From IMG/VR virus record IMGVR_UViG_3300030085_000705, positions 1 through 42,039 of that record: a DNA stretch of 42,039 bases, one strand, 5' to 3'. Every line of letters starts with the position of its first letter. Position 1 is the stretch's first letter. Both the position numbers and the translations under genes were made by a program. A model generated the notes under the pieces. That model worked only from the letters and a program-made list of their open reading frames with translations, made no database searches and was not told the DNA's origin. The DNA is from a virus. Positions 6,954 through 41,167 of the stretch are shown piece by piece.

Positions 6954-7157
6954 ATGAGCAAAGTACACATTATTAGCGGTCCAGGAGAAGATGCACCTAA
7001 ACCTGTATCTAAACTCGTTATAGATGGACAGGGTTCTATTCCTTATTCAACATCAGTTGAAGAAGCTACTCCCAATATTGAAACTGGGAAGATGGTTTCT
7101 GGTAAGAAAAAAGGAATGAGAGCAGCTTTACGTGGCGGCAAATTTAAAAGTTGTTAA
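6954..7157 (+). CDS. Small unknown protein
   Basis: The product has 67 residues and a clear ribosome-binding site (AGAGAGG) before the ATG. It ends in GMRAALRGGKFKSC, which resembles the end of the preceding protein (Cys, Ala, Arg-Gly-Gly). I recognise no family. It is the second of six consecutive tiny basic genes. Confidence 0.6.
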   Translation: MSKVHIISGPGEDAPKPVSKLVIDGQGSIPYSTSVEEATPNIETGKMVSGKKKGMRAALRGGKFKSC

Positions 7158-7158
7158 C

Positions 7159-7338
7159 ATGGCTAAGAAGAAATCTACGGTAAATAAAGCAGGTAACTAC
7201 ACTAAACCTGCAATGAGAAAACGTCTTTTTAACAAAATTAAAGCTGGATCAAAAGGCGGTCGAGCAGGTCAATGGAGTGCTAGAAAAGCACAGATGTTGG
7301 CAAGACAATACAAAGCTGCTGGTGGGGGTTATAGATAG
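7159..7338 (+). CDS. Small basic protein with GQWSARKAQ motif
   Basis: The ATG at 7159 directly follows the previous stop and gives a 59-residue product. A start at 7132 would only add ten residues inside the upstream gene. The motif GRAGQWSARKAQMLARQYKA, followed by a Gly-rich end, is a small conserved family of phages and some large DNA viruses, with no known function. The protein is very basic. The next gene begins at its stop codon (TAGTG). Confidence 0.7.
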   Translation: MAKKKSTVNKAGNYTKPAMRKRLFNKIKAGSKGGRAGQWSARKAQMLARQYKAAGGGYR

Positions 7339-7595
7339 TGGCTTTAAAAAAGTCCCAGCGATCACTAAAAAAGTGGACTAGACAAAAATGGCGAACACCA
7401 AGCGGTAAGAAATCTTCTGAGACTGGTGAAGTTTATGCACCGGCCGCAAAAATTAAAAGACTGAAATCCACTCCTGCTGGCAGGCGTAAGTTAGCTGCGG
7501 CCAATAGGAAAAAACGTGCGGCTACTGCAAAAGGAAAGCAGCACGCTAAACATGGTTTGCATAAAAAGAAAACCACAAGAAGGAAACGTAAGTAA
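7338..7595 (+). CDS. Small Lys/Arg-rich conserved phage protein
   Basis: The 85-residue protein starts at a GTG that shares a base with the previous stop. The N-terminus (LKKSQRSLKKWTRQKWRT, then PSGKKSSETGEVYAPA) is a pattern I associate with a conserved small protein of marine phages. The C-terminal half is almost wholly Lys, Arg, Ala and Gly, with a KHGLHKKK end. The charge suggests nucleic-acid binding; no function is established. Confidence 0.7.
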   Translation: MALKKSQRSLKKWTRQKWRTPSGKKSSETGEVYAPAAKIKRLKSTPAGRRKLAAANRKKRAATAKGKQHAKHGLHKKKTTRRKRK

Positions 7596-7903
7596 TGGCA
7601 AAGAAAAAAGACCCAAGATTAGCTAGAGCGGGCGTTAGCGGTTATAACAAACCTAAAAGAACGCCCAATCACCCAACTAAGTCACACGTTGTTGTTGCAA
7701 AAGAAGGCGATAAGATAAAAACTATTCGCTTTGGACAACAAGGTAAAAGAGTGGGAACTTTGAAGGGAACAGCAGGTAAAGCCAAAAAAGGTGAGTCTGC
7801 CAGAATGAAAGCAAAGAGAAAATCTTTTAAGGCTCGGCACGCAAAAAACATAAGACGCGGAAAAATGTCTGCCGCTTGGTGGGCTGACAAGGTTAAATGG
7901 TAA
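7595..7903 (+). CDS. Small conserved basic phage protein
   Basis: The 102-residue product begins with DPRLARAGVSGYNKPKRTPN, then TKSHVVVAKEG, a short beta hairpin (KIKTIRFGQQG), and ends with KARHAKNIRRGKMSAAWWAD. This architecture recurs in tailed marine phages next to head genes, with no assigned role. It is very basic, with two adjacent Trp residues near the end. The start overlaps the preceding stop (TAATG). Confidence 0.7.
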   Translation: MAKKKDPRLARAGVSGYNKPKRTPNHPTKSHVVVAKEGDKIKTIRFGQQGKRVGTLKGTAGKAKKGESARMKAKRKSFKARHAKNIRRGKMSAAWWADKVKW

Positions 7904-8055: not shown

Positions 8056-8409
8056 ATGAATGAAAAACTCGCAGAGGCTAACGAAATGATAGACGAGCAA
8101 GAAACACTCAAAAAGAAAATAGAGATTGAATTAGAGGTTGGATCTACTCACGTAAACCGTGGCATAAACCCTTATCAAAAATGGATTCATTTAGCTAGAG
8201 CAGTAGATGCCTGGCGAATATTTCCTCGTATGTTTTTAAGTGTATATATATTTTTATTGTATTATTCTGTTATGTGGTTCATGGAGTTACCAGAGCCTAA
8301 CCTAGAACAGTCTGGCCTTATTTCTATAATTGTAGGTGCAGGGGCGGCATGGTTTGGACTATATGCAGGGAGTGCTAGTTCTAGTAAAAACTTCAAAGGT
8401 GAAGAATAA
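8056..8409 (+). CDS. Membrane protein, two helices (holin candidate)
   Basis: The 117-residue protein has a charged N-terminal coiled region (residues 1-40) and two hydrophobic helices, about 57-75 (FPRMFLSVYIFLLYYSVMWF) and 86-105 (GLISIIVGAGAAWFGLYAGS). A similar two-helix small protein with the WFGLY element is common in marine phage late regions. The position ahead of lysis genes makes a holin or pinholin role possible. No experimental family is recognised. Confidence 0.65.
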   Translation: MNEKLAEANEMIDEQETLKKKIEIELEVGSTHVNRGINPYQKWIHLARAVDAWRIFPRMFLSVYIFLLYYSVMWFMELPEPNLEQSGLISIIVGAGAAWFGLYAGSASSSKNFKGEE

Positions 8410-8616
8410 GTGCCTAAAAGAATCTTTTTGACTGAGTTTTATCACGAAGGTACGCCTTACGAGGGGCCACGTATCGTAGCCAGTGATTTTTTTGATGCAG
8501 AGCAAAAAGCAAAAGAATACGATTGTAGCGTCGTTGGCGTGTTAGACATAATTGTTGACGAAGACGATTTTTCTATGGACTTTAAAGTAGAACAATGGAA
8601 CAGGGTTTTACATTAA
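8410..8616 (+). CDS. Small soluble unknown protein
   Basis: A GTG start directly follows the previous stop. The 68-residue product reads as a small alpha/beta fold: FLTEFYHEGTPYEGPRIVAS, then an acidic helix and VVGVLDII. Similar small proteins occur next to membrane proteins in phages, but I know no function. Its 3' end overlaps the next gene by 22 bases. Confidence 0.6.
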   Translation: MPKRIFLTEFYHEGTPYEGPRIVASDFFDAEQKAKEYDCSVVGVLDIIVDEDDFSMDFKVEQWNRVLH

Positions 8617-8891
8617 TAGCTGAGTTAGGGCTGCCCGTGGCTGGCGGTCTTGTCATGGCTTACTTTATTTTTCTTGTAATGAAACAACTTATGGACGGTT
8701 TAGTAGGCGAAATACAAACAGTCCAAGCCATATCTAAAATGCTTATCACCAGAGCAGCAACAATGAATAACGATATGATACGCATAGACACTAGCGTATC
8801 TGCTGCTTTAAATTTATCGCCCGATCTTGATAGAATAGCTAGAGCAGAGAATTTTGTTGAGGACGGAAAGATAGATGCAAGACGAGATTAG
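8595..8891 (+). CDS. Small membrane protein (holin-like)
   Basis: The 98-residue protein has one hydrophobic helix at about residues 7-30 (IAELGLPVAGGLVMAYFIFLVMKQ) followed by a helical cytoplasmic or periplasmic tail. The layout (short N-terminus, one membrane helix, coiled tail) equals that of the gene at 9057, so the two may be paralogues. A holin or antiholin role is inferred from the neighbouring lysis genes. Confidence 0.6.
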   Translation: MEQGFTLIAELGLPVAGGLVMAYFIFLVMKQLMDGLVGEIQTVQAISKMLITRAATMNNDMIRIDTSVSAALNLSPDLDRIARAENFVEDGKIDARRD

Positions 8892-9057
8892 TTTACCCCC
8901 GGTAGGTGATGCAGAAGCAGTCGTTGATGGTTTATTTGGTTTAATTTACTTATATCCATCAGATTATTTGATTGTGTTCGGCAGTCTTACGTTATTTGCA
9001 ATATATGGTTTATCTATATATGCAGGTATCAAATACATACAAAAGAAGTTTAAATAA
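8875..9057 (+). CDS. Small single-pass membrane protein
   Basis: The 60-residue product has a membrane helix at about residues 31-54 (DYLIVFGSLTLFAIYGLSIY) and a basic C-terminus (KKFK). It overlaps the genes on both sides (17 bases before, 1 base after), so it belongs to the same translational chain of membrane proteins. No family is recognised. Confidence 0.6.
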   Translation: MQDEISLPPVGDAEAVVDGLFGLIYLYPSDYLIVFGSLTLFAIYGLSIYAGIKYIQKKFK

Positions 9058-9320
9058 TGGATATAGTTGCGCTTATATCCGAGTTTGGCTTTCCGGTAGT
9101 GATGGTAGTAGGTTTAGGTTACTTTGTTTATTTTGTATGGCAAACTATCACCAATAAAATAGATCCTGCCGTCCAAGAAATGAAAGTGACTATAATTAGG
9201 CTTACCGATCAATTACGACTGTTAGATCAAGATATGATACGATTACAACAGAAAGTCAATACTGTTTTAGAATTAAAAGAAGAAAATAGGTTAGTAGAAG
9301 ACAATGAAAAGAAAAAATAA
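9057..9320 (+). CDS. Holin-like membrane protein with coiled-coil tail
   Basis: This is an 87-residue protein with one N-terminal membrane helix (FGFPVVMVVGLGYFVYFVWQ, about residues 10-29). A coiled-coil follows in which Leu, Ile and Val recur every three to four residues (IRLTDQLRLLDQDMIRLQQK). Short proteins of this shape serve as holins or holin regulators in many phages. It overlaps csgF by 17 bases. Confidence 0.62.
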   Translation: MDIVALISEFGFPVVMVVGLGYFVYFVWQTITNKIDPAVQEMKVTIIRLTDQLRLLDQDMIRLQQKVNTVLELKEENRLVEDNEKKK

Positions 9321-9792
9321 ACTAGAGTTTATAACTAATATATTCTTTTATTTTTGTTTGTTTTTTGTGGCTATTTCTTTTGTTAATAAAATTAACGCAA
9401 AGGTAGATACTCTTTCTTTTAAGTTTAAAAACCCTAGCTTTTCAGGAATTAACACTTCTTCACATTACTTAACAGTTGACTCACAAGAAGCTAGTAGAAA
9501 ACAAGCGGTCAAAGATGAAATAGAAGCGTACAAAGATGAATTAGCTAGAGACGCTCAAAACACAACATTAGCGCGTTTTATAAGAAACCTAGAATCACGT
9601 ATATATGCGCAATTGTCTCGTCAAATGGTAGAACAACTATTTGGTGAACAAAAATCTACAGAGGGTAAACTTGAACTAGAGGGAAATACGATTGAGTATG
9701 TTGTTGAAGCAGAAACTATTACGCTCACAATTACTGACGAAAACGGGGGAAAAACTGAAATTTCTGTTCCTGTCGGTGATTTTACTTTCTAG
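9304..9792 (+). CDS. csgF: CsgF-like curli assembly protein
   Basis: The 162-residue protein starts with a signal peptide (hydrophobic residues 11-28, likely cleaved after Ala32). The mature N-terminus DTLSFKFKNPSFSG (residues 35-48) matches the CsgF segment F-x-F-x-N-P-x-F that plugs into the CsgG pore. The C-terminus (beta strands with LTITDENGGKTEISV, then DFTF) also follows CsgF. A central helix (about 60-115) is as in the family. In bacteria CsgF exits through CsgG and nucleates curli at the surface. The gene overlaps csgG by 95 bases, so the pair is tightly coupled. Confidence 0.85.
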   Translation: MKRKNKLEFITNIFFYFCLFFVAISFVNKINAKVDTLSFKFKNPSFSGINTSSHYLTVDSQEASRKQAVKDEIEAYKDELARDAQNTTLARFIRNLESRIYAQLSRQMVEQLFGEQKSTEGKLELEGNTIEYVVEAETITLTITDENGGKTEISVPVGDFTF

Positions 9793-10549
9793 TGGTTGCG
9801 CTTCTAAGAATTTATTAGAGGGTGGCGGTGTACCTAGCATTGTTATACAAAAATCCTCGATATTGGATTTACAGTCCGAAGAATTAAAAAACTTACCCGC
9901 GGCCAAAAGAAAACCTGTAATAGCTATTTATCCAAGTAGTTTTATGGATCACACAGGGCAACGCAAAAGTAATGGTCAGTTTGCTCTTTTCAGTACCGCT
10001 ATAACCCAAGCCCCAGAAGCCTATTTAATTCGCGCACTTAAACACGCTGCAAACGGAGAGTTTTTTAGAGTAACTGAGCGGGTAGGACTCGACTCTTTGA
10101 CCAAAGAGCGCCAAATTATTAGAAGTACACGTGAATCGTTTGAAGAAGAAACAGAAGTAAAACCTTTGCTTTTTGCTGGACTTTTGATTCAAGGTGGTGT
10201 ATTGAGTTATGATACAAGTACAAAAAGCGGCGGTGCTGGGGCTAGATGGTTAGGCATAGGTTCATCAAAACAGTTTGTCGAAAACTTAATCACAATCAGT
10301 CTAAGGCTTGTTTCAGTATCTACGGGGGAAATATTGATTGAGGTTCTTGTCTCAAAAACAATACTTTCAGTTAGTTTATCCCAAGACATTTTTAGATTTA
10401 TAGAGGAAGGCACGCAGTTAGTAGAAGTAGAGGGCGGTGTCACAGAAACAGAAAGTTCCTCAATTGCTTTACAAAAAGCCATAGAAGAAGGTGTTTTACA
10501 AATAATTGCCACAGGCATAGAAAGAGGATATTGGGAGTATGGAGAATAA
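9698..10549 (+). CDS. csgG: CsgG-like curli secretion channel lipoprotein
   Basis: This is the outer-membrane pore of the curli system. The lipobox region FLFLSVILLSSGC gives a lipidated Cys about 34 residues from this start. Diagnostic CsgG blocks follow: a GQ...FST stretch matching the constriction loop, then AYLIRALK, ERVGLDSLTKERQIIR, GGVLSYDTSTKSGGAGARWLGIG, LRLVSVSTGEIL, SKTIL, FRFIEEG and ATGIERGYWE. The length fits the family. The start is uncertain: TTG at 9692, ATG at 9698, or CTG at 9755 behind GGGGG, which would give a compact signal peptide. The overlap with the curlin-like gene is 11 bases. Confidence 0.9.
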   Translation: MLLKQKLLRSQLLTKTGEKLKFLFLSVILLSSGCASKNLLEGGGVPSIVIQKSSILDLQSEELKNLPAAKRKPVIAIYPSSFMDHTGQRKSNGQFALFSTAITQAPEAYLIRALKHAANGEFFRVTERVGLDSLTKERQIIRSTRESFEEETEVKPLLFAGLLIQGGVLSYDTSTKSGGAGARWLGIGSSKQFVENLITISLRLVSVSTGEILIEVLVSKTILSVSLSQDIFRFIEEGTQLVEVEGGVTETESSSIALQKAIEEGVLQIIATGIERGYWEYGE

Positions 10550-11270
10550 ATTTAATAAAATTACCGCAGTTGTTCTTTTAGCTTTGTTAGTTTTTGCCGT
10601 TGGAACAAATGCAGACGACAATGAAATCTTTGTTAACCAAGTAGGTGCGACAGCAAACATTGACTTAGAGCAGTTAGGTTCTGGCAACATTATAGGTGGT
10701 CTAAACTCAGCACATGGCTCTATGACTGAGTTTGATTTAGATGGTGCAACTATGACATTAGATGTCAACCAAATAGGTAATAATAACAAGATGTTAGGTG
10801 ATATTAATGCAGATAGCCTCACAGGTATATTTGATTTTGATGGAGATACTAACTCGTACACCATACAAGTTGATCCTGGTAACTCGAACTCGGCAGACAA
10901 CGCCAATATAAATGTGGACGTAGACGGCAGTACGAATACCATGACACTAGACTTAGCTACCAACAGTTTAGCGAGTGGTGCAGATATAGATACGATTGTG
11001 CAAGGTAGTAGTAACACTGTCCATATTGATTTAGATGTAGACTCAGGTACAAGTTATATTGACCTAGATGGTGACTCAAATACCGTTGACCACAATGCGG
11101 ACGGCTACGCTGGCGTTTACTTCAAACTAGAACATGATGGATCAACAAGGAGTTTTGACATTGACCAACAATCTACGCAAGACAATGATTGGCTTAGGGT
11201 CGTTAGTTCTGGTTCTGGCGGAAGCGTATGTATTAACCAATCAGACCAGGGTACTAGCACAAGCTGTTGA
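10539..11270 (+). CDS. Secreted curlin-like Asp-rich repeat protein
   Basis: The 243-residue protein has a signal peptide (residues 1-25, cleavage after TNA). The mature part has irregular beta-solenoid-like repeats of about 20-25 residues with the curlin pattern Q-x-G-x-x-N followed by alternating hydrophobic residues. Examples are NQVGATANIDLEQLG near 33, DVNQIGNNNKM near 75, VQGSSNTVHIDLD near 154 and DLDGDSNTVD near 175. Many Q positions are replaced by Asp, giving a very acidic protein. It ends with Cys231 and Cys243. It is the likely substrate of the adjacent CsgG/CsgF. It is more divergent than CsgA or CsgB, so no symbol is given. Confidence 0.75.
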   Translation: MENKFNKITAVVLLALLVFAVGTNADDNEIFVNQVGATANIDLEQLGSGNIIGGLNSAHGSMTEFDLDGATMTLDVNQIGNNNKMLGDINADSLTGIFDFDGDTNSYTIQVDPGNSNSADNANINVDVDGSTNTMTLDLATNSLASGADIDTIVQGSSNTVHIDLDVDSGTSYIDLDGDSNTVDHNADGYAGVYFKLEHDGSTRSFDIDQQSTQDNDWLRVVSSGSGGSVCINQSDQGTSTSC

Positions 11271-12291
11271 TATAGGAAGTATTACAGAACTAAAAGGTAA
11301 TACCAGAGTCGTAAGAGACAAGCCATACGAAAGTGTGATTGACTTCTCACTGAACGCTATGGATCGCCTAGAAACCAGTAACGGCAGAATGGGCGTTATG
11401 TTCCGTGACGATACTACAATCAGACTGACAGAACATTCAAATGTCGTTATAGATAAGTTTGTATTCGACCCCAACCCCAGCAAATCTAGTATGGCTTTGA
11501 ACTTCGTTAAAGGAACAGGCCGTTTTATTTCTAGTAAGAAACCACGCATACCCAAAGAAAATATCTCAATAAAGACAAACGCAGCTACAATTGGAATAAG
11601 GGGAACGGACTTCACAATCACTGTAAAAGAGTCTGGTGAGAGTTTAGTCATTCTTTTACCAGATGAAAATGGAGACAGTTCTGGTGAGATAGTTGTTACA
11701 ACGGCTTTCGGTAGTGTGGTTCTAAATAAACCATACCAAGCTACAACCGTTTATAACCTAGAAACACCACCCACTAATCCAGTCATACTCGATCTTACAT
11801 TAGATATGATTGATAACTACTTGATTGTAAATCCACCAAAAGAACGCGAACTTGATACAGATGACTCTAGGACTGCGAACAACAATACAATACTAGATGT
11901 TGATTTTTTGGAGTTTGACGAACTCGATACAGATGAACTAGAACAAGATGATTTAGAGTATACAGAACTAGATATAGATTACCTTGCTGCTAATTTTCTT
12001 GAAGATTTGTTAGATGTAATACAGGAAGTAGATGAATTGCAAAAAGCAGACGCACAATTGTCAGAGCAAGGATTGAGAGGAACAGCAGTTGGGTATGATA
12101 GCCAAACTCAAATATCTAGCTTTATAACTGATTCAGAAGTAAAACTTATAAGACAAGTAGAAGACAAGCTAGAAATTAAGGTATCTAAAGATGGCAGCTA
12201 CGATATTCGTATAGATCAGGAGGGAAAAGTCAATCAGGTTAGCGTAAACGGAGGAACGTCGTCAATTATCAATATTAGGCAAGGAAGCTAA
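11161..12291 (+). CDS. FecR-domain protein with curlin-like tail
   Basis: I choose the TTG at 11161 because AAGGAG ends 8 bases upstream. The product then starts MTNNLRKTMIGLGSLVLVL, a good signal peptide or anchor; an ATG at 11185 is the alternative. The FecR-type domain spans about residues 35-190, with RLTEHSNVVIDKFVFDP, the KGTGRFIS segment and the hallmark SIKTNAATIGIRGTDF. An acidic linker (about 230-290) precedes a tail with IDQEGKVNQVSVNGG and INIRQG, resembling a curlin repeat. It overlaps the curlin-like gene by 110 bases. It may anchor or nucleate the fibre; this is inferred. Confidence 0.75.
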   Translation: MTNNLRKTMIGLGSLVLVLAEAYVLTNQTRVLAQAVDIGSITELKGNTRVVRDKPYESVIDFSLNAMDRLETSNGRMGVMFRDDTTIRLTEHSNVVIDKFVFDPNPSKSSMALNFVKGTGRFISSKKPRIPKENISIKTNAATIGIRGTDFTITVKESGESLVILLPDENGDSSGEIVVTTAFGSVVLNKPYQATTVYNLETPPTNPVILDLTLDMIDNYLIVNPPKERELDTDDSRTANNNTILDVDFLEFDELDTDELEQDDLEYTELDIDYLAANFLEDLLDVIQEVDELQKADAQLSEQGLRGTAVGYDSQTQISSFITDSEVKLIRQVEDKLEIKVSKDGSYDIRIDQEGKVNQVSVNGGTSSIINIRQGS

Positions 12292-12331
12292 TTTTTTCTG
12301 ATAAAGTTGTATATTATCTTTAAAAATTGTG

Positions 12332-12344
12332 TATACTCTCAAAC
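12332..12344 (+). promoter_or_regulatory. Candidate promoter for the spanin genes
   Basis: The 53-base gap after the FecR gene is AT-rich and contains TATACT at 12332-12337, a good -10 hexamer. A weak TTGTAT lies at 12307-12312 with a long 19-base spacer. If real, transcription would start at or just before the ATG at 12345, giving a leaderless or nearly leaderless message. No Shine-Dalgarno sequence is visible. Confidence is low. Confidence 0.3.
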
Positions 12345-12788
12345 ATGAATTTAAAAATATCTGCAGTTTTAGGAACTTTATTATTAACTTCACTTGTTTC
12401 CTTTAAACTTTACTACGATCGTGCTGAAGCGCAAAAAGCTGTTTTGACAGCCCAACTACAGTTAGCAATGGACAACCAAGTTTTGTTAGAAAACTCAATA
12501 AAAAAGCAGAATGAAGAAATAGAAAAGTATTTAGAAAACGAAAAAGAAAGTAAATTAAAAATATCAGAACTTACTTTGGCAAATAGTGCCGCACAGGTTC
12601 AAGTAAATAATTTAAAACAAAAGTTTGCAAAACACGATTTAAACGTTTTATCTATGGCTAAACCAGGATTGATCGAGCGTTTAGTAAACAGAGCGACAGC
12701 TAGGGTAGGAAAAGATTTAGAAGAACTTACTGATCCAGACCAATTTAATGAAGATACTGAGACTACTGATACTGACAGCGCTTCTTAG
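12345..12788 (+). CDS. Inner-membrane spanin (Rz-like)
   Basis: The 147-residue product has an N-terminal membrane anchor (residues 5-20, ISAVLGTLLLTSLVSF). A long periplasmic coiled-coil rich in Gln, Lys and Glu follows (about 25-95), then an acidic C-terminus. This is the layout of the i-spanin, which with its lipoprotein partner fuses inner and outer membranes at the end of lysis. The partner gene starts inside its 3' end, as is usual for Rz/Rz1 pairs. A TTG at 12327 is possible but lacks support. Confidence 0.75.
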   Translation: MNLKISAVLGTLLLTSLVSFKLYYDRAEAQKAVLTAQLQLAMDNQVLLENSIKKQNEEIEKYLENEKESKLKISELTLANSAAQVQVNNLKQKFAKHDLNVLSMAKPGLIERLVNRATARVGKDLEELTDPDQFNEDTETTDTDSAS

Positions 12789-13119
12789 CGGTTGCACCGC
12801 ACTTGATGCTCGTTTTACTAAACCGGACGTAAAACCGGTTGAAATTGTCACTGTAGAAAAACCCGCTCCTATGTATCACCCACCCTTACCTAATCAAATT
12901 ACAGCCATGCCGGTCGAGTGGACCGTCCTAACGCCGGTAACAATGCAAGAATATCTAAACGATTTGGAAAATCAAGAGGCCCCAGCACAAGCCTACTATG
13001 GTTTGACAAATAAAGGTTATGAAAATTTGTCTAATAATATTGCGGAAGTTAAACGATACATAAGACAACTTTTATCTATAAATGAATATTACCGAAGTTT
13101 AGATAAACAAGAAGATTAA
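12748..13119 (+). CDS. Outer-membrane spanin lipoprotein (Rz1-like)
   Basis: The 123-residue product starts with a short signal and lipobox, MKILRLLILTALLSGC, so Cys16 should be lipidated. The Pro-rich segment after it (KPAPMYHPPLPNQ) is typical of o-spanins. The C-terminal part is helical (YENLSNNIAEVKRYIRQLL) and may pair with the i-spanin. It overlaps the i-spanin gene by 41 bases in another frame. It is longer than lambda Rz1 but within the range of o-spanins. Confidence 0.75.
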   Translation: MKILRLLILTALLSGCTALDARFTKPDVKPVEIVTVEKPAPMYHPPLPNQITAMPVEWTVLTPVTMQEYLNDLENQEAPAQAYYGLTNKGYENLSNNIAEVKRYIRQLLSINEYYRSLDKQED

Positions 13120-13139
13120 TCATAAATTAGGAGTTTAAC

Positions 13140-13349
13140 ATGAGTATTTTAAGTTGGTTTAAATCACTTTTTAAAGTTACAGAACAAGAAAAAGTTCGTG
13201 CAAAAGATTGTAAAGGACGTTTTGTAGCAGATGATCCTAGCACGCCAGATGTAAACGAAGCATGGACTGTTAAGAAAAAAGATACGAAAGTGTCGGCTAA
13301 AAAGAAAACTAAAAAGAAAAAGGCAAAAAAGAAAAAGGCAAAAAAATGA
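13140..13349 (+). CDS. Small protein with poly-Lys tail
   Basis: A strong AGGAG precedes the ATG. The 69-residue product begins with an amphipathic helix (SILSWFKSLFKV), has a central KGRFVADDPSTPDVNEAW element, and ends in a run of Lys with Ala and Thr. The stop overlaps the endolysin start (ATGA). The VADDPSTPDVNEAW element is, from memory, widespread in marine phages; the function is unknown. The amphipathic, highly cationic make-up could let it touch membranes or DNA. Confidence 0.65.
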   Translation: MSILSWFKSLFKVTEQEKVRAKDCKGRFVADDPSTPDVNEAWTVKKKDTKVSAKKKTKKKKAKKKKAKK

Positions 13350-13789
13350 ACATATCCCAAGAAGGTTTATCACTTATAAAAAAGTTTGAAGGTTGTGAAC
13401 TTAAAGCTTATAGATGCGCCGCAAATGTTTTAACAATTGGGTACGGCTCAACTAAAGGTGTGACCGAGGATATGGAAATTACTCAGGAAGAAGCAGAAAC
13501 GCTTCTACAAGAGGAAATGCACGAATATGAGGGCTACATTAACGATATGGTTAAAGTACCCTTAGAACAACACCAGTTTGATGCAATGGTGTCTTGGGTG
13601 TTCAACTTAGGTTCAGGTAATTTAAGTTCTTCCACTTTGCTTCGCGTTCTTAACGAAGGAAAATACGAAGAAGTTCCAGAACAAATCCTAAGATGGAACA
13701 AGGCAGGCGGCAAGGTTTTGGACGGTTTAGTAAGACGCAGAACAGCCGAGTCTTTGTTATTTGAAGGTAAAGATTGGAAACAAGTTTAA
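13346..13789 (+). CDS. Endolysin, GH24 lysozyme
   Basis: This 147-residue muramidase cleaves the glycan strand of peptidoglycan. It shows the T4/P22-type catalytic spacing: Glu15 (KKFEGCELKAY), Cys24 and Thr30 (TIGYG), that is Glu-8-Cys-5-Thr. Cys replaces the Asp of T4 lysozyme, as in P1 Lyz. Downstream blocks (FDAMVSWVFNLG, LRWNKAGGKVLDGLVRRR) complete the family pattern. No signal peptide or SAR domain is seen, so it needs a holin for export. It follows the spanins, forming a lysis cassette. Confidence 0.9.
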   Translation: MNISQEGLSLIKKFEGCELKAYRCAANVLTIGYGSTKGVTEDMEITQEEAETLLQEEMHEYEGYINDMVKVPLEQHQFDAMVSWVFNLGSGNLSSSTLLRVLNEGKYEEVPEQILRWNKAGGKVLDGLVRRRTAESLLFEGKDWKQV

Positions 13790-35222: not shown

Positions 35223-38200
35223 ATGGTTAGAAAAGTAGACAATTTTGATTTACGCGGAGCGTTTAATTACCTTGTAGAAGATCAAGACGAAGGTGGTATG
35301 GGTTTAACACGACCGCAAGCTGAGAGTCAAATAGCCCAGCGTTTAGCCAAAGAAGTTGATTTTGATTACACAGCGGCTACCGAAGCGGGATTCAATAACC
35401 AACAAATTATATCAAAACTAACCGGCATTGAAGATCGTGGCGCTTTGTCTGTACTTGGAGAGGCCACGGCTCGCGGAGCAATAGGTGCTATACCAGAAGC
35501 ACTTACTTTTGTTCCTGGAGTTAAAGCAGGTGCTGCATTGGGTGTGTCAGGGGGTCCAGCGGGTATACTTGGTGGTGCTATTCTCGGTGGTATTGGATTA
35601 CCTTTACTTACATCTATTGTCGATCAGCAAGTCGGGCTTACTAAATCTGTTAGTGATTTTTTATTAGGCGAAGAAGAACCGGTATTGCCGTCAGATCAAC
35701 CGTTTAGAGAAGCTGGAAAAGTAACGGGTGGTGTTCTTAGTTTCAGTGGGGCTTTGCGTCGTGGCTTGGCTAAATCTGCATTAGGGGATATGCCTACAGG
35801 ACAGGCAGGTGCCGCTTTAGTTGACACGGGTGCAGACTTTGGATCTAAAAAAATATTAGCCAATTTACGTAAATACGACCCTGATGCAAAAACTCCGTTG
35901 AGTTTACGAGCATTACAGGCTACAGAAGATGTAGCTACTCGCATGGCAACCAGAGCACGGGCCCCGGGTCGAGATTACTATTTAAGACAAGAGGTACCGA
36001 TTGCAACCGCGTTTGGTGTAGGTGCTGGCGTAGCCGAGCAGATAGACCCCGGAGACGCAGTAACGTCATTTTTAACGTCTTTGGGTGCTGGTTTAGTTGT
36101 GCCTACTTCGGTTTTAAGCAGAATTACTGGCGGTGCTGCAGCAAAATCAGCACAAGCTGGACAAGCGTTAAGGCACCCGAGCGAAACTTTTCAGAATATA
36201 TTAACCAAGCTAAGAGACAAGAAAGAAAGTAAAGCAAGAAATGATTTAATAAAACTTTACGAAGGTATAGTAAAAAATGCCGAGTCCCCCGGTAGGGCTA
36301 AAGCGGCGGCCGAGGGTGTCCCTTATGATCCAAAAATACACAGTCCTAACGTTGATTTTACAAGATTAAATCCAGGAGGCGCGGCAGAAACTATGAGAGT
36401 CGCAGAAGAATTAATAGCCGAGATAATTCCTGGAATAGAAAAATATCTTTCACCTGGAATAATACCCGTTGACCCTAAAGCTCCTGGGTATGATGCTTAT
36501 TTTGGTGTGCTTCGTCTACAAGGAGAAGCAATGAATAAAAACGCTAAATTAAAAAAACAAGTGAGTGATGCAACACAAAAGGCGTTTGTTTTATCGGCTA
36601 AAACTTTAGGGGACGCTATAAAAGTTGGAGAGCCTGACTTAATAGCCGTTCACGCAAAAAGATTTATAGAAAGGCAAGAAAATTTTATTGGCGAATTGTT
36701 GCATAACGAGTTAAGCACAGTCACAGAAACATTAGATAAAATGAAAGCTAAAGGCATACTTAAAGATGGTCAAGCCAGCGAAATAATTGTTAGAACAATT
36801 AATAAATTAGAAAGTTACGCAAGAGACATAGAAAAACGTTTATACGATTCAGAATTAATAGATTACCTTGCGAGCGTAAAACCCAATTTTCTTATAAAAG
36901 GTCTTAACGAAGATGAAGCTAAAGCTGCCCTACAAGGGCGTTTTATGGCTAGTGACATAAAAAGTGCAGATGGCAAGAAAGCTCTTGAGTTAATCGAAGA
37001 AATTAAAGCTAGGATTCCTAAAGCAGATCCCACGCTTCAGAGGCCACCTAAGTTAAAGGGTAAGGCTTTAATGGATGAAAACATTAGGAATCAAAGGGAA
37101 GGAATCGAAGAATTAATTAAAACTCGAAACGAACCCGATACAATAAAATTTTTAATAGATCAAAACATTGCATTTGGTGGGAGGTTATCTGAAGAACAAC
37201 TGAAAAAAATGAGCGACGGTGAATTTAAGATACTTTTATCTAAATTACAAAATGGTTCTTCCATAACAAAAAGAAAAAGCCAAGCCATTCCTTCTATTTT
37301 GAAGCCGGGTATAGAGCCAAAAGTGCCAAGAATAAGAGATATTGTTAGAAACATTGATCCGGACTTTGATGAAATGAGCGAACTTGTTTCTTCTATGGGT
37401 CGCGACGCAAAAATCTCACGGAAAAAAAATCCTCGTACGGGTCTGCCACTTGGTATAGAAATATTGCCGTCACATAGAATGAAAAGAGGCGGCGAAAGTA
37501 GCATTGATGGCCTTATGGAAAGAGCCATAGATGAGGGTTATTTTCCGGGATATGGAATAAATGAGTTTACGGCTGGTCCGGGAGGAAAGGTATTAAGTCG
37601 TGATGAATTTTATGATGCTTTAGAAAACAATATAGCCAAGTCGGACGACCAAGTTAGGTTAGATGAATATCAAAATAAAGTTGAGATAGCCGCTGATCTT
37701 CAAGAATCTTTAGACAAAGCGGGTATAAAAAATAAAGATATTCGTGGCATGACTGATGATGAGCTATTTGAATTAGTTGCTGATATAGATTCCGGTATAT
37801 TACCGCCAAGAAGAATTAGAGAACAAGTCGGTGGATTCCCTAAAGATATGCCGGCTAAAGAGCGTAGGCGTTTAGATAAAGAATTAGAAGCACAAGCGCA
37901 AGCGCAAGCTGGTCAGATACAATACGATCCAGATATTCCGGCACAGATTATGACGGTTGGTGATGCAATTAGGATTCGTTCTTTGATAGGAGATGCGCTT
38001 AGAGATACCGTTACAAAACCAAGCGAACGAAGGTATCTTACTCGCATACGAAAAAATGTACTCAAAGATTTATTAGAAAACACAGATTTAGATGAAACGC
38101 GAGAAGCTTTAATTTTGGCAAACACTTTTACAAAAGCAAAAAATGACGTGTTTTCCCGCACAAAAGGCGGTGAAATGGCTAAAGACCTAAAATATTCAGA

Positions 38201-39728
38201 CGATAATGTTTTTGCAGAAAACCTTCTTGCTGCAGGCAGGCCTAACGAATTAGGCAATAGGGTTACTGGATTACAAAAGTTTGGACAGTTTTTTGAAGAT
38301 CAAGCTACAGAATTGTTAAAAGTAGGCGATCCAGAACTTACAGCACTTGTAGAAAACATAATACCGATTTCTCAAAACTCTGCTTTAACTATAGAAAACA
38401 GTATAGTTAAAGTTATTAGAGGTATGCTGCTTAACGGCGTTCTTGAAACTAAACCACAAAGCAAGCTTATTCCAAGAGATATAAAAAAAGCATTACCCGG
38501 TCAATTTGATGCAGATCAAGTTGTAGTAAATGAAGCAAAACTTAAAACTTTTATGAATAGGTATAAAGCTGCTGCCGATCAAAATCCTAGCATAAGAGAA
38601 TTGTTTGAAGACATGAGCGATCCAGTTAAAGCTCAACAAGTTATCCAGGGCCTTAGAGAAGGTAAGGGTATGCCTGAAAGAGGTATACTCCCAATGCAAG
38701 AAAGAATAGATCAGAAAAATGCTTTGAGCGATATTCTTAACGTAGACAGCCCTGTTTTTAGGATCCTTCAAATTTTAGAAAGCAAAGATCCACAAACTAG
38801 ATTAGACAACCTTATAAAACAGGTTAATTTAATAAGGACTTCAAACATACCAGTAACGTATAAAGGCAAAAAGGTTCCAGCAAAAGAGGTGTTTGAACCT
38901 GCCGTCAATAGTTTAGTAAGTTCTTTTATACAGGTTGCTCGAGACGCAAGTTACATAAAAGGTAAAGATATTTTTGAATCAGGGGATCTCACACCAATAG
39001 GTAAATATGACGCAAAGATATTCCGTCAAGTGTTTTTTGAAACAGGAGAAGTTTTTCCTCAAATGAAAGACTTACCTTCCGTTGCAGATACTTTGTTAAA
39101 ACAAGGAATTATTGATAAAGCTAAATATAATCAAATAGATAACGTTACGTTAGCTATGGAACGTATGCAAAATCAACTAGCGTACATGGATCTTTTGCCA
39201 GATATGTCAACAAAATCAAAACAACTTTTTCAAACTTTTGTTGCTAGGTATATCGGTGCGAGAGGGGGTTCGGCTTTAGGTACTGATACTATACAGGTTC
39301 CGGGAGCGGCTGCCGGACTCGCTGAAGATATTCTTTTGAGATCGCCTAATACGGCTTTTATATCTTTTTTGAGTGAGTTGTTTGAACCAGGCGGCTACGA
39401 AAACTTTTTGAAAATGCTTGAAAATACTGCAGAACAAGTAGGAAAAAGACAACGTAGTCAAGCGTTCGAGACTCCATTGTTAGTGCCACCATTAAAAGAT
39501 TCTCCGTTAGCCGTCGCTGCTCCGGTAGAAGCAATCACTCGAGACAGGGAAGAAGAAAGAACGATCACGCCTCCACCACCACAGCTATCTCAGGCGTCAC
39601 CGTCAGTAAATCCTATGCAGACCGCTAACCAGAGAGCACGCTACGCGGCTATGTTCCCACTTGATCCGGCTTCTTCACTTATCAGAGAACGTCAAGCACA
39701 GGGCATAGGAAGTCTTCCTAGACCTTAA
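35223..39728 (+). CDS. 1501-residue virion protein, probable ejection protein
   Basis: The largest gene here. An N-terminal helical part is followed by a hydrophobic, Gly/Ala-rich segment (about residues 83-135: GAIGAIPEALTFVPGVKAG, then GGAILGGIGLPLLTSIV), and another near 265-300. Most of the remainder is charged helix, ending in a Pro-rich disordered region (about 1445-1475). The hydrophobic segments could insert into the host membrane. No lytic transglycosylase or protease motif is visible. Its stop overlaps the stop of the opposing helicase gene by three bases. Confidence 0.65.
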   Translation: MVRKVDNFDLRGAFNYLVEDQDEGGMGLTRPQAESQIAQRLAKEVDFDYTAATEAGFNNQQIISKLTGIEDRGALSVLGEATARGAIGAIPEALTFVPGVKAGAALGVSGGPAGILGGAILGGIGLPLLTSIVDQQVGLTKSVSDFLLGEEEPVLPSDQPFREAGKVTGGVLSFSGALRRGLAKSALGDMPTGQAGAALVDTGADFGSKKILANLRKYDPDAKTPLSLRALQATEDVATRMATRARAPGRDYYLRQEVPIATAFGVGAGVAEQIDPGDAVTSFLTSLGAGLVVPTSVLSRITGGAAAKSAQAGQALRHPSETFQNILTKLRDKKESKARNDLIKLYEGIVKNAESPGRAKAAAEGVPYDPKIHSPNVDFTRLNPGGAAETMRVAEELIAEIIPGIEKYLSPGIIPVDPKAPGYDAYFGVLRLQGEAMNKNAKLKKQVSDATQKAFVLSAKTLGDAIKVGEPDLIAVHAKRFIERQENFIGELLHNELSTVTETLDKMKAKGILKDGQASEIIVRTINKLESYARDIEKRLYDSELIDYLASVKPNFLIKGLNEDEAKAALQGRFMASDIKSADGKKALELIEEIKARIPKADPTLQRPPKLKGKALMDENIRNQREGIEELIKTRNEPDTIKFLIDQNIAFGGRLSEEQLKKMSDGEFKILLSKLQNGSSITKRKSQAIPSILKPGIEPKVPRIRDIVRNIDPDFDEMSELVSSMGRDAKISRKKNPRTGLPLGIEILPSHRMKRGGESSIDGLMERAIDEGYFPGYGINEFTAGPGGKVLSRDEFYDALENNIAKSDDQVRLDEYQNKVEIAADLQESLDKAGIKNKDIRGMTDDELFELVADIDSGILPPRRIREQVGGFPKDMPAKERRRLDKELEAQAQAQAGQIQYDPDIPAQIMTVGDAIRIRSLIGDALRDTVTKPSERRYLTRIRKNVLKDLLENTDLDETREALILANTFTKAKNDVFSRTKGGEMAKDLKYSDDNVFAENLLAAGRPNELGNRVTGLQKFGQFFEDQATELLKVGDPELTALVENIIPISQNSALTIENSIVKVIRGMLLNGVLETKPQSKLIPRDIKKALPGQFDADQVVVNEAKLKTFMNRYKAAADQNPSIRELFEDMSDPVKAQQVIQGLREGKGMPERGILPMQERIDQKNALSDILNVDSPVFRILQILESKDPQTRLDNLIKQVNLIRTSNIPVTYKGKKVPAKEVFEPAVNSLVSSFIQVARDASYIKGKDIFESGDLTPIGKYDAKIFRQVFFETGEVFPQMKDLPSVADTLLKQGIIDKAKYNQIDNVTLAMERMQNQLAYMDLLPDMSTKSKQLFQTFVARYIGARGGSALGTDTIQVPGAAAGLAEDILLRSPNTAFISFLSELFEPGGYENFLKMLENTAEQVGKRQRSQAFETPLLVPPLKDSPLAVAAPVEAITRDREEERTITPPPPQLSQASPSVNPMQTANQRARYAAMFPLDPASSLIRERQAQGIGSLPRP

Positions 39729-41167
39729 ATTAGCCACTCCCGGCTTTGTTCTCCCAATACTTCTTGAGCAATATCAATTTTACCCTTTAAAGCAGCGAGT
39801 ATTTTTTCATCAACCGTGTCCGGGCTTACTAAGTCTACGTAGGTTACGTGATTTTTTTGTCCTATGCGGTGGGCCCTGTCTTCTGATTGTATGCGTGTTT
39901 CTAAATCATAGCCGTTATTCCAATAGATTACGTTAGTTGCCGCAGTTAACGTCAAACCGTAACCACCTGTCTTGGGATTACCAACAAAGAAACGTAAAGG
40001 ATTTTCTTTGTCTTGGAAGTTTTTGACTATCTCTTGGCGTTTGTCTTGTGGCGTAGCTCCATAAAAAGCTTCCGCACTGTCCTCACCATATCGTTCTTTT
40101 AACTTATTGACTATCCGTTCTAAATCATACACCCACGTAGCCCATATAATTACTTTGCCTGACATTTCATCAATGGTGCTCAGTAGTTCGTCTAAACGTT
40201 TATTCGGTATCTCTTGTATCTCACCATCATCTGTCTTTAAATGCCCGCAGCATATTTCTTGTAATCGCATTATTTGAGTCAATACGCTAGTGGTTGTGGA
40301 TAACTCTCCTTTTTCTAAACGTGCGATAGCTAGTTTTTTCATCTGCACGTATGCGGATAACTGTTCTTTACTCAACGGCACCCGCCTTGATGTGTATATC
40401 TTTTCAGGTAAATCTAAACAATCTTCTTTTAAAACCCTGGAACTAAACGAGTCTAACTTACCGTGCAGTTCATCTAAACGTTGGTAGCCAGTAATTTCTT
40501 GGAAACTACGCATACCCATAGCTCTTTTCCTAACAATTGCATAACGTGCTTGATATGCGAAGAAACTTTTAAATCCAAGCAGTTGCGGACTTAAAAAATC
40601 ACATTGACTGAATAAATCCATAGGATTCTTTGTAATTGGAGATCCTGTCAGTATGCGTTTGTATTTAGCCAGACTGGCGGCTTTCAACGCATTTTTTGTG
40701 CGTAATGCTTTGCGATTCTTTATGGCCGTACTCTCGTCCATAATAAATAGGTTGTTGGGATTCATCTTTAAAAACTTAAATGCACTGGACGCGCCTTTGA
40801 CAGTAGATAAAGCTTCTACGTTCATAGCCAATATATGCAGATCAGTGTGTCCCGGATCAGCTAACTCGGTTAACGCTTCACGGTACTTTTTAGTTATGTT
40901 AGGTTGCCACTGGACCATTTTAGAATTTATGCGGTCGGGCAAATGTTGTGGTATTTCTTTTTCGACCCAGTTTGCGAACACACCTTTTGGCGCAACGATA
41001 AGAACCGTATTGATAGCATTGGCTTCGTACAATGCTCCGAGAGTATCTATTGCAATCTTTGTTTTACCCGTCCCCATTTCAAGAAAAAGCGCGTGCTGCT
41101 TGGCTTTCCACGTTTTTTCAAATATCTTTCTTTGATGCTCATACGGCTTCGTTTTATATTTATACAT
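39725..41167 (-). CDS. SNF2-family DNA helicase/ATPase
   Basis: The 480-residue protein shows the SNF2 motifs in order: HQRKIFEKTW then EMGTGKT (Walker A, 31-36), VLIVAPKGV (Ia) and DESTAIKN (II, 144-151). LTGSPIT (III), GGYGLTLTAATNVIYWN (V) and RIQSEDRAHRIGQ (VI) follow. It is short and compact, as in phage members, lacking insertions of the eukaryotic proteins. It translocates along dsDNA and probably serves replication or recombination. It is the only clear minus-strand gene. GGAG lies ahead of the ATG. Confidence 0.9.
   Translation of the reverse strand: MYKYKTKPYEHQRKIFEKTWKAKQHALFLEMGTGKTKIAIDTLGALYEANAINTVLIVAPKGVFANWVEKEIPQHLPDRINSKMVQWQPNITKKYREALTELADPGHTDLHILAMNVEALSTVKGASSAFKFLKMNPNNLFIMDESTAIKNRKALRTKNALKAASLAKYKRILTGSPITKNPMDLFSQCDFLSPQLLGFKSFFAYQARYAIVRKRAMGMRSFQEITGYQRLDELHGKLDSFSSRVLKEDCLDLPEKIYTSRRVPLSKEQLSAYVQMKKLAIARLEKGELSTTTSVLTQIMRLQEICCGHLKTDDGEIQEIPNKRLDELLSTIDEMSGKVIIWATWVYDLERIVNKLKERYGEDSAEAFYGATPQDKRQEIVKNFQDKENPLRFFVGNPKTGGYGLTLTAATNVIYWNNGYDLETRIQSEDRAHRIGQKNHVTYVDLVSPDTVDEKILAALKGKIDIAQEVLGEQSREWLI

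What the first reader, a model, noticed from the sequence alone, without database searches (positions are those of the whole stretch)
9304..12291. A compact curli (amyloid secretion) module in a phage genome
csgF, csgG, a signal-peptide-bearing curlin-like protein and a FecR-domain protein follow each other with overlaps of 95, 11 and about 110 bases, all inside a phage late region. CsgG and CsgF keep family-defining blocks. No CsgE, CsgC or CsgD is present, so the phage may borrow host factors or make a reduced secretion system. Possible roles are surface fibres on infected cells that trap virions or neighbours, exclusion of other phages, an outer-membrane pore aiding lysis, or decoration of released particles. 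Lone csgG genes have, to my memory, been noted in marine phages; a full locus with its own substrate and a FecR partner is the less known part.
Basis: partly seen in the sequence, partly recalled or inferred. Interest (0 to 1): 0.92.

Follow-up and report, generated by a model that had tools for sequence, protein, structure and literature searches.

The report
Curli secretion module in marine phage
This ocean phage carries a small, complete-looking set of genes for exporting an amyloid-like (curli-type) protein through the outer membrane of the cell it infects; such sets were already reported in phages of SAR11 and OM43 bacteria in 2020-2022, so it is a real but known kind of module, with two published gene annotations that now look doubtful.

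Summary
The genes are csgF (9304-9792, Pfam CsgF E=3.7e-19), csgG (9692/9698-10549, CsgG E=1.1e-42, lipobox Cys), a signal-peptide curlin-like protein (10539-11270, predicted beta-solenoid, pLDDT 84) and a FecR-domain protein (11134/11185-12291, E=5.7e-12). They form one strictly conserved unit: of 107 pooled marine viral FecR loci with enough upstream DNA, 106 carry small-membrane-protein(s)-csgF-csgG-curlin-FecR in that order. All four genes are under purifying selection. The window is a relative of the HTVC023P-type pelagiphages.

The module is not new.

What I add: (1) the gene(s) preceding csgF, at the place of Wittmers' "histidine kinase", encode short single-TM, coiled-coil proteins; no HATPase domain exists anywhere in this record, HTVC008M or Melnitz. 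(2) "FecR" lacks the regulator architecture, carries a signal peptide and ends in a curlin-like strand, so a secreted anchor/nucleator is more likely than an iron regulator. (3) CsgE and adenylate cyclase are absent from this record.

Function (surface fibres versus lysis pore) stays untested; the conserved substrate favours secretion.

The parts
8056..8409 (+). two-TM small membrane protein, holin candidate (phrog_10198, unknown function); flanking gene, not part of the core module
   Evidence: sequence shows two C-terminal hydrophobic segments; found in only 10 of the related loci
8595..8891 (+). small single-TM coiled-coil protein, copy 1 (phrog_18771); sits where Wittmers 2022 place a 'histidine kinase'; weak holin-profile similarity for the family; no kinase domain
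8875..9057 (+). 60-aa membrane peptide between the two copies; present in 14 of the related loci
9057..9320 (+). small single-TM coiled-coil protein, copy 2 (phrog_18771 paralogue)
9304..9792 (+). CsgF: coupler/cap of the CsgG pore, with signal peptide; FKFKNPSFSG block kept
   Evidence: PF10614 E=3.7e-19; phrog_35372; dN/dS about 0.05-0.24
9692..10549 (+). CsgG: outer-membrane lipoprotein pore; likely start ATG 9698; lipobox LSSGC
   Evidence: PF03783 E=1.1e-42; PDB CsgG E=1.7e-40; lipobox-like Cys in 143 of 145 relatives
10539..11270 (+). curlin-like secreted beta-solenoid protein, putative fibre subunit; conserved C-terminal cysteine pair
   Evidence: pLDDT 83.9 all-beta solenoid; BFVD 'Curlin associated'; PF07012 sub-threshold 14.3 bits; invariant Cys231/Cys243 in 51 aligned sequences
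11134..12291 (+). exported FecR-domain protein; likely start ATG 11185; signal peptide + FecR domain + acidic 5-residue-periodic segment + curlin-like C-terminal strand; putative anchor/nucleator
   Evidence: PF04773 E=5.7e-12; alignment; tail tests; no DUF4880
12327..13119 (+). Rz/Rz1-like spanin pair (12327-12788, 12748-13119); flank, not core module
   Evidence: phrog_739 E=1.2e-6, phrog_812 E=2.1e-12
13346..13789 (+). phage lysozyme (endolysin); flank
   Evidence: PF00959 E=1.6e-49

Best explanation
A phage-encoded, reduced curli (type VIII) secretion module of the pelagiphage kind, carried as cargo between the portal and GroES/capsid genes of an HTVC023P-type-related podophage. Late in infection, host Sec would export CsgG, which as a nine-fold lipoprotein pore sits in the outer membrane with CsgF at its extracellular mouth. 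The curlin-like beta-solenoid protein would pass through this pore and assemble on the cell surface. The FecR-domain protein, exported too and ending in a curlin-like strand, would be the surface anchor or nucleator (the CsgB role) rather than an iron regulator. The resulting fibres would alter the surface of the infected cell, most plausibly holding cells or virions together or hindering rival phages. Shown: gene identities, order, purifying selection, beta-solenoid prediction, absence of CsgE, histidine-kinase ATPase and cyclase domains from this record. Inferred: secretion, fibre formation, the FecR role, the benefit to the phage.
For: CsgF/CsgG/FecR profiles; CsgG alignment to solved CsgG through the pore domain; beta-solenoid model of the substrate with curlin-annotated viral matches; 106 of 107 FecR loci keep sTM-csgF-csgG-curlin-FecR; the substrate and FecR are as constrained as the pore, dN/dS mostly 0.03-0.13, which argues for an exported cargo rather than a pore alone; the C-terminal motif [IVA]x[IV]xQx0-4 is in 9 of 10 curlins tested against 2 of 943 background ORFs, and a related strict pattern is in 128 of 139 FecR tails; same module in HTVC008M and Melnitz and in the literature.
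Against: Curlin repeats score below the Pfam cut-off in this protein. FecR-tail similarity to curlins is weak by HMM (best E 0.19; 2 of 150 column-shuffled controls as good) and not seen against bacterial curlins alone; the C-terminal pattern was chosen after looking. The FecR model is low confidence, pLDDT 48. No CsgE was found, so specificity of export is unclear. Buchholz et al. saw no cell clumping in Melnitz infections (PMC9004378). The module often lies beside lysis genes, here between a holin candidate and spanins/lysozyme, which fits a lysis role too.
Confidence: 0.62

Rival explanations
1. CsgG/CsgF are repurposed as an outer-membrane pore that times or assists lysis (pinholin/secretin idea of Buchholz 2022); the curlin-like and FecR proteins are secondary.
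For: Here the module sits between a holin candidate and spanins/lysozyme. A lysozyme lies near the module in 26 of 50 loci with enough flank. The small TM proteins match holin PHROGs weakly. Proposed in PMC9004378.
Against: The secreted substrate and FecR are retained with the pore in 106 of 107 loci and are equally constrained. About half of the loci have no lysozyme nearby. The window already has a full spanin pair and lysozyme.
Confidence: 0.18
2. FecR acts as an iron-responsive regulator of the module, with an upstream histidine kinase and a cyclase (Wittmers 2022).
For: FecR domain present, E=5.7e-12; published proposal.
Against: No DUF4880 anti-sigma domain and no sigma-70 region 2 in this record. 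No histidine-kinase ATPase domain in the window, HTVC008M or Melnitz records, with 14 of 14 control genomes positive. No cyclase in this record. The protein begins with a signal peptide and ends in a curlin-like strand.
Confidence: 0.07
3. The pore serves nutrient or macromolecule uptake by the infected SAR11-type cell (Zaragoza-Solas 2020; Wittmers 2022).
For: No CsgE gate found, so the pore could stay open.
Against: Does not explain CsgF, the conserved exported beta-solenoid protein or FecR.
Confidence: 0.06

Closest known systems
Pelagiphage T8SS/curli module (Wittmers et al. 2022, PMC9599517; HTVC023P-type podophages and pelagimyophages)
   Same: Same gene order csgF-csgG-curlin-FecR, preceded by one or two small genes; the window's TerL is 63-65% identical to HTVC027P and 023Pt_psg01 and the module lies in a portal-to-GroES slot that in these two relatives holds no csg genes.
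   Different: This copy has no second curlin after FecR and no adenylate cyclase, and is followed directly by spanins and lysozyme. The preceding genes are not histidine kinases.
HTVC008M and Melnitz csg clusters (KC465899, MZ577096; PMC7029224, PMC9004378)
   Same: csgF, csgG, curlin-like, FecR homologues in the same order; CsgG 37-44% identical.
   Different: Those carry a second curlin, some repeats above the Curlin_rpt cut-off, and a cyclase; they are myophages of about 141-147 kb.
Alphaproteobacterial cellular curli loci
   Same: csgF next to csgG, with curlin genes close by; the phage CsgG constriction-loop length matches these rather than E. coli by inspection.
   Different: Two QxGxxN-rich curlins each; no FecR-motif protein within the 16 kb examined in three loci.
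E. coli csgBAC-csgDEFG
   Same: CsgG and CsgF homologues.
   Different: No CsgE found; no recognisable classical CsgA/CsgB; CsgC and CsgD not seen in the locus.

Membership tests
Curli / type VIII secretion system | CsgG outer-membrane lipoprotein pore | tested here: met
   PF03783 E=1.1e-42; PDB CsgG E=1.7e-40; lipobox Cys
Curli / type VIII secretion system | CsgF partner encoded beside csgG | tested here: met
   PF10614 E=3.7e-19; adjacent in 106 of 107 loci
Curli / type VIII secretion system | Exported subunit with curlin repeats (PF07012) | tested here: inconclusive
   14.3 bits against cut-off 20.7 in the window; 20 of 51 relatives match weakly; beta-solenoid predicted; the Melnitz curlin in the same position passes the cut-off
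Curli / type VIII secretion system | CsgE gate | tested here: not met
   No PF10627 match in the window record, HTVC008M or Melnitz; E. coli control positive. CsgE is reported as non-essential in PMC7029224, so this marks a reduced system
Curli / type VIII secretion system | Secretion of amyloid fibres | not testable with these tools
   needs expression and microscopy
FecR-type transmembrane anti-sigma regulator | FecR domain | tested here: met
   PF04773 E=5.7e-12
FecR-type transmembrane anti-sigma regulator | N-terminal cytoplasmic DUF4880 anti-sigma domain and partner sigma factor | tested here: not met
   No PF16220 and no PF04542 in the window record
Histidine kinase (published label for the gene before csgF) | HATPase_c catalytic domain | tested here: not met
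   No PF02518 match in the window, HTVC008M or Melnitz records; 14 of 14 controls positive. That these genes are the published 'HK' is inferred from position and copy number
Holin (small TM proteins before csgF) | match to holin families | tested here: inconclusive
   11 of 21 members match holin phrog_4898 weakly, best E=3.6e-4; best family phrog_18771 has unknown function

The most novel reading that the evidence does not exclude
The FecR-domain protein is a new, virus-specific kind of curli nucleator/anchor: an exported FecR domain joined through an acidic five-residue-periodic segment to a curlin-type C-terminal strand, replacing CsgB and possibly tying the fibre to the cell surface or the virion. 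The small TM proteins before csgF would then be dedicated inner-membrane partners of the module rather than histidine kinases.
Probability: 0.3. Interest if true: 0.55.

Novelty: new member of a known kind. Interest (0 to 1): 0.36.

Why it matters
If the module works, phages of some of the most abundant ocean bacteria give their hosts a new function, extracellular amyloid-type fibres, during infection. That could change aggregation, superinfection and gene exchange in the open ocean. The present copy adds a lysis-cassette setting and a minimal form without second curlin or cyclase. It also shows that two published labels, 'histidine kinase' and 'iron regulator FecR', should be revisited before regulation models are built on them.

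Tried and rejected
DNA-level search of phage records with the locus: no match. FecR structure prediction was too weak to use (pLDDT 48), so no fold search was run on it. Foldseek against PDB gave no match below E 0.001 for the curlin-like model; VIA-align gave generic beta-helices at the top, so fold alone does not prove curlin membership. FecR-tail HMM against bacterial curlins only: best score 1.1 against a shuffled mean of 1.7, so no support; only the comparison that includes phage curlins, and the C-terminal pattern, gave modest support. The genome-collection search with FecR returned five loci in MAG or single-cell contigs; four of them carry the same phage-type module genes, so they look like phage contigs and gave no cellular FecR-curli link. 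The 'histidine kinase' reading was rejected by the HATPase search. The 1.5-kb 'Salmonella phage S.Kent' csgG hit was set aside as a probable host-derived fragment.

Full report
What is there. The window is one 42,039-base virus record. Its terminase large subunit is 63-65% identical to those of Pelagibacter phage HTVC027P and phage 023Pt_psg01, and its portal protein 49-57%. The gene order from portal through a GroES co-chaperonin to the capsid is shared with both. It is therefore a relative of the HTVC023P-type pelagiphages; a SAR11 host is likely but inferred.

The four genes are real. CsgF has E=3.7e-19, CsgG 1.1e-42 and FecR 5.7e-12 against Pfam. CsgG aligns with the solved E. coli pore protein from residue 24 to 282, E=1.7e-40, and has a lipobox (LSSGC). 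CsgF keeps the FKFKNPSFSG block; its match to solved CsgF by single-sequence search is weak (E=0.43), so the CsgF call rests on the profile. The curlin-like protein has a signal peptide, nine GxxN motifs (shuffled mean 2.65, P=0.0002) and two QxGxxN motifs (P=0.004). It is predicted as a beta-solenoid with pLDDT 83.9 and pTM 0.81. The best viral structural matches are proteins named 'Curlin associated', E=5.9e-5. In solved structures the top matches are general beta-helices; the CsgA fibril appears at Z 11.7 but with rmsd 8.5. By profile it stays below the Curlin_rpt cut-off (14.3 against 20.7 bits), whereas the Melnitz protein in the same position passes.

Conservation. A CsgG scan of viral contigs gave 197 relatives, of which the best 80 were kept. 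In the pooled set, among 107 FecR genes with enough upstream DNA, 106 have small-TM protein(s), csgF, csgG and curlin upstream in that order; the small TM gene is single in 77 and double in 27 of the clean patterns. Part of this pool was found through CsgG, so the linkage count is not fully unconditioned. Pairwise dN/dS outside the overlaps is mostly 0.03-0.13 for all four genes, with some saturated dS values. The exported protein is as constrained as the pore.

Published state. The cluster was first reported in pelagimyophages by Zaragoza-Solas et al. 2020 (PMC7029224), then in the OM43 phage Melnitz by Buchholz et al. 2022 (PMC9004378), who proposed a lysis pore and saw no clumping. Wittmers et al. 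2022 (PMC9599517) described the complete csgF-csgG-csgA/B-FecR module in nine HTVC023P-type podophages and in myophages, found it at all 65 ocean virome stations and in metatranscriptomes, and argued for an alphaproteobacterial origin. The finding is thus a further member of a described kind.

Two published labels look doubtful. Wittmers et al. state that one or two histidine kinases always precede the module. At that position, in 106 of 107 loci, I find short proteins (mostly 85-117 residues) with one N-terminal membrane segment and a coiled-coil tail. They belong to phrog_18771 (unknown function), with weak secondary matches to holin families. No HATPase_c domain occurs anywhere in the window, HTVC008M or Melnitz records, while all 14 control genomes are positive. 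That these are the same genes as the published 'HK' is inferred from position and copy number. Second, FecR is called an iron-dependent regulator. The protein has no DUF4880 anti-sigma domain, the window encodes no sigma-70 region 2, and the protein starts with a signal peptide. Its middle shows eight leucines at five-residue spacing. Its C-terminus ends in S-x-I-x-I-x-Q-x-x in 128 of 139 cases. Curlin C-termini share [IVA]x[IV]xQx0-4 in 9 of 10 proteins tested, against 2 of 943 other ORFs. Profile support is modest: the best non-FecR hits of the tail HMM are phage curlins, E=0.19, with 2 of 150 shuffled controls as good, and there is no signal against bacterial curlins alone. I therefore read it as a probable secreted partner of the fibre, an anchor or nucleator, with moderate confidence only.

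Neighbourhood. In three alphaproteobacterial cellular loci, csgF-csgG is accompanied by two QxGxxN-rich curlins and no FecR-motif protein within 16 kb; the sample is small. In this window the module lies between a two-TM holin candidate (8056-8409) and a spanin pair plus lysozyme (12327-13789). Across loci with enough flank, a lysozyme is near in 26 of 50. CsgE and the adenylate cyclase are absent from this record and no second curlin follows FecR. The record is classed as linear and may be incomplete, so absence outside the locus is not proof.

Mechanism. Most likely: Sec export, a CsgG9-CsgF pore, secretion of the curlin-like protein, surface assembly with FecR as anchor or nucleator, late in infection. 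Export, assembly and benefit are inferred. The lysis-pore rival is possible but does not explain why the substrate and FecR are almost never lost.

Noticed in passing
window 8595-9320: Two paralogous small single-TM coiled-coil proteins (phrog_18771) with a 60-aa membrane peptide between them; one or two copies precede csgF in nearly every relative.
   Followed up: partly
window 11860-12060 (FecR product, middle): Acidic segment with eight leucines at exact five-residue spacing (ILDVDFLEFDELDTDELEQDDLEYTELDIDYLAANFL), like a pentapeptide-repeat coil, conserved across relatives.
   Followed up: partly
OR851715.1 (phages collection): A 1,499-base record named Salmonella phage S.Kent 1-2-1 matches CsgG; probably a bacterial csgG fragment deposited as phage.
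   Followed up: no
L086, L088, L087/L089 (genome contigs): MAG contigs assigned to Maricaulis and Neomarinimicrobiota carry the phage-type csg module, one of them split over the two ends of a 60.8-kb contig; they look like phage contigs binned into bacterial genomes.
   Followed up: partly
window 39725-41167 (-): SNF2-type helicase on the opposite strand right after a 1501-aa ORF (35223-39728).
   Followed up: no
window 7132-7903: Run of small, very basic Lys/Arg/Gly-rich ORFs between portal and module; similar basic genes fill the same slot in HTVC027P and 023Pt_psg01.
   Followed up: partly
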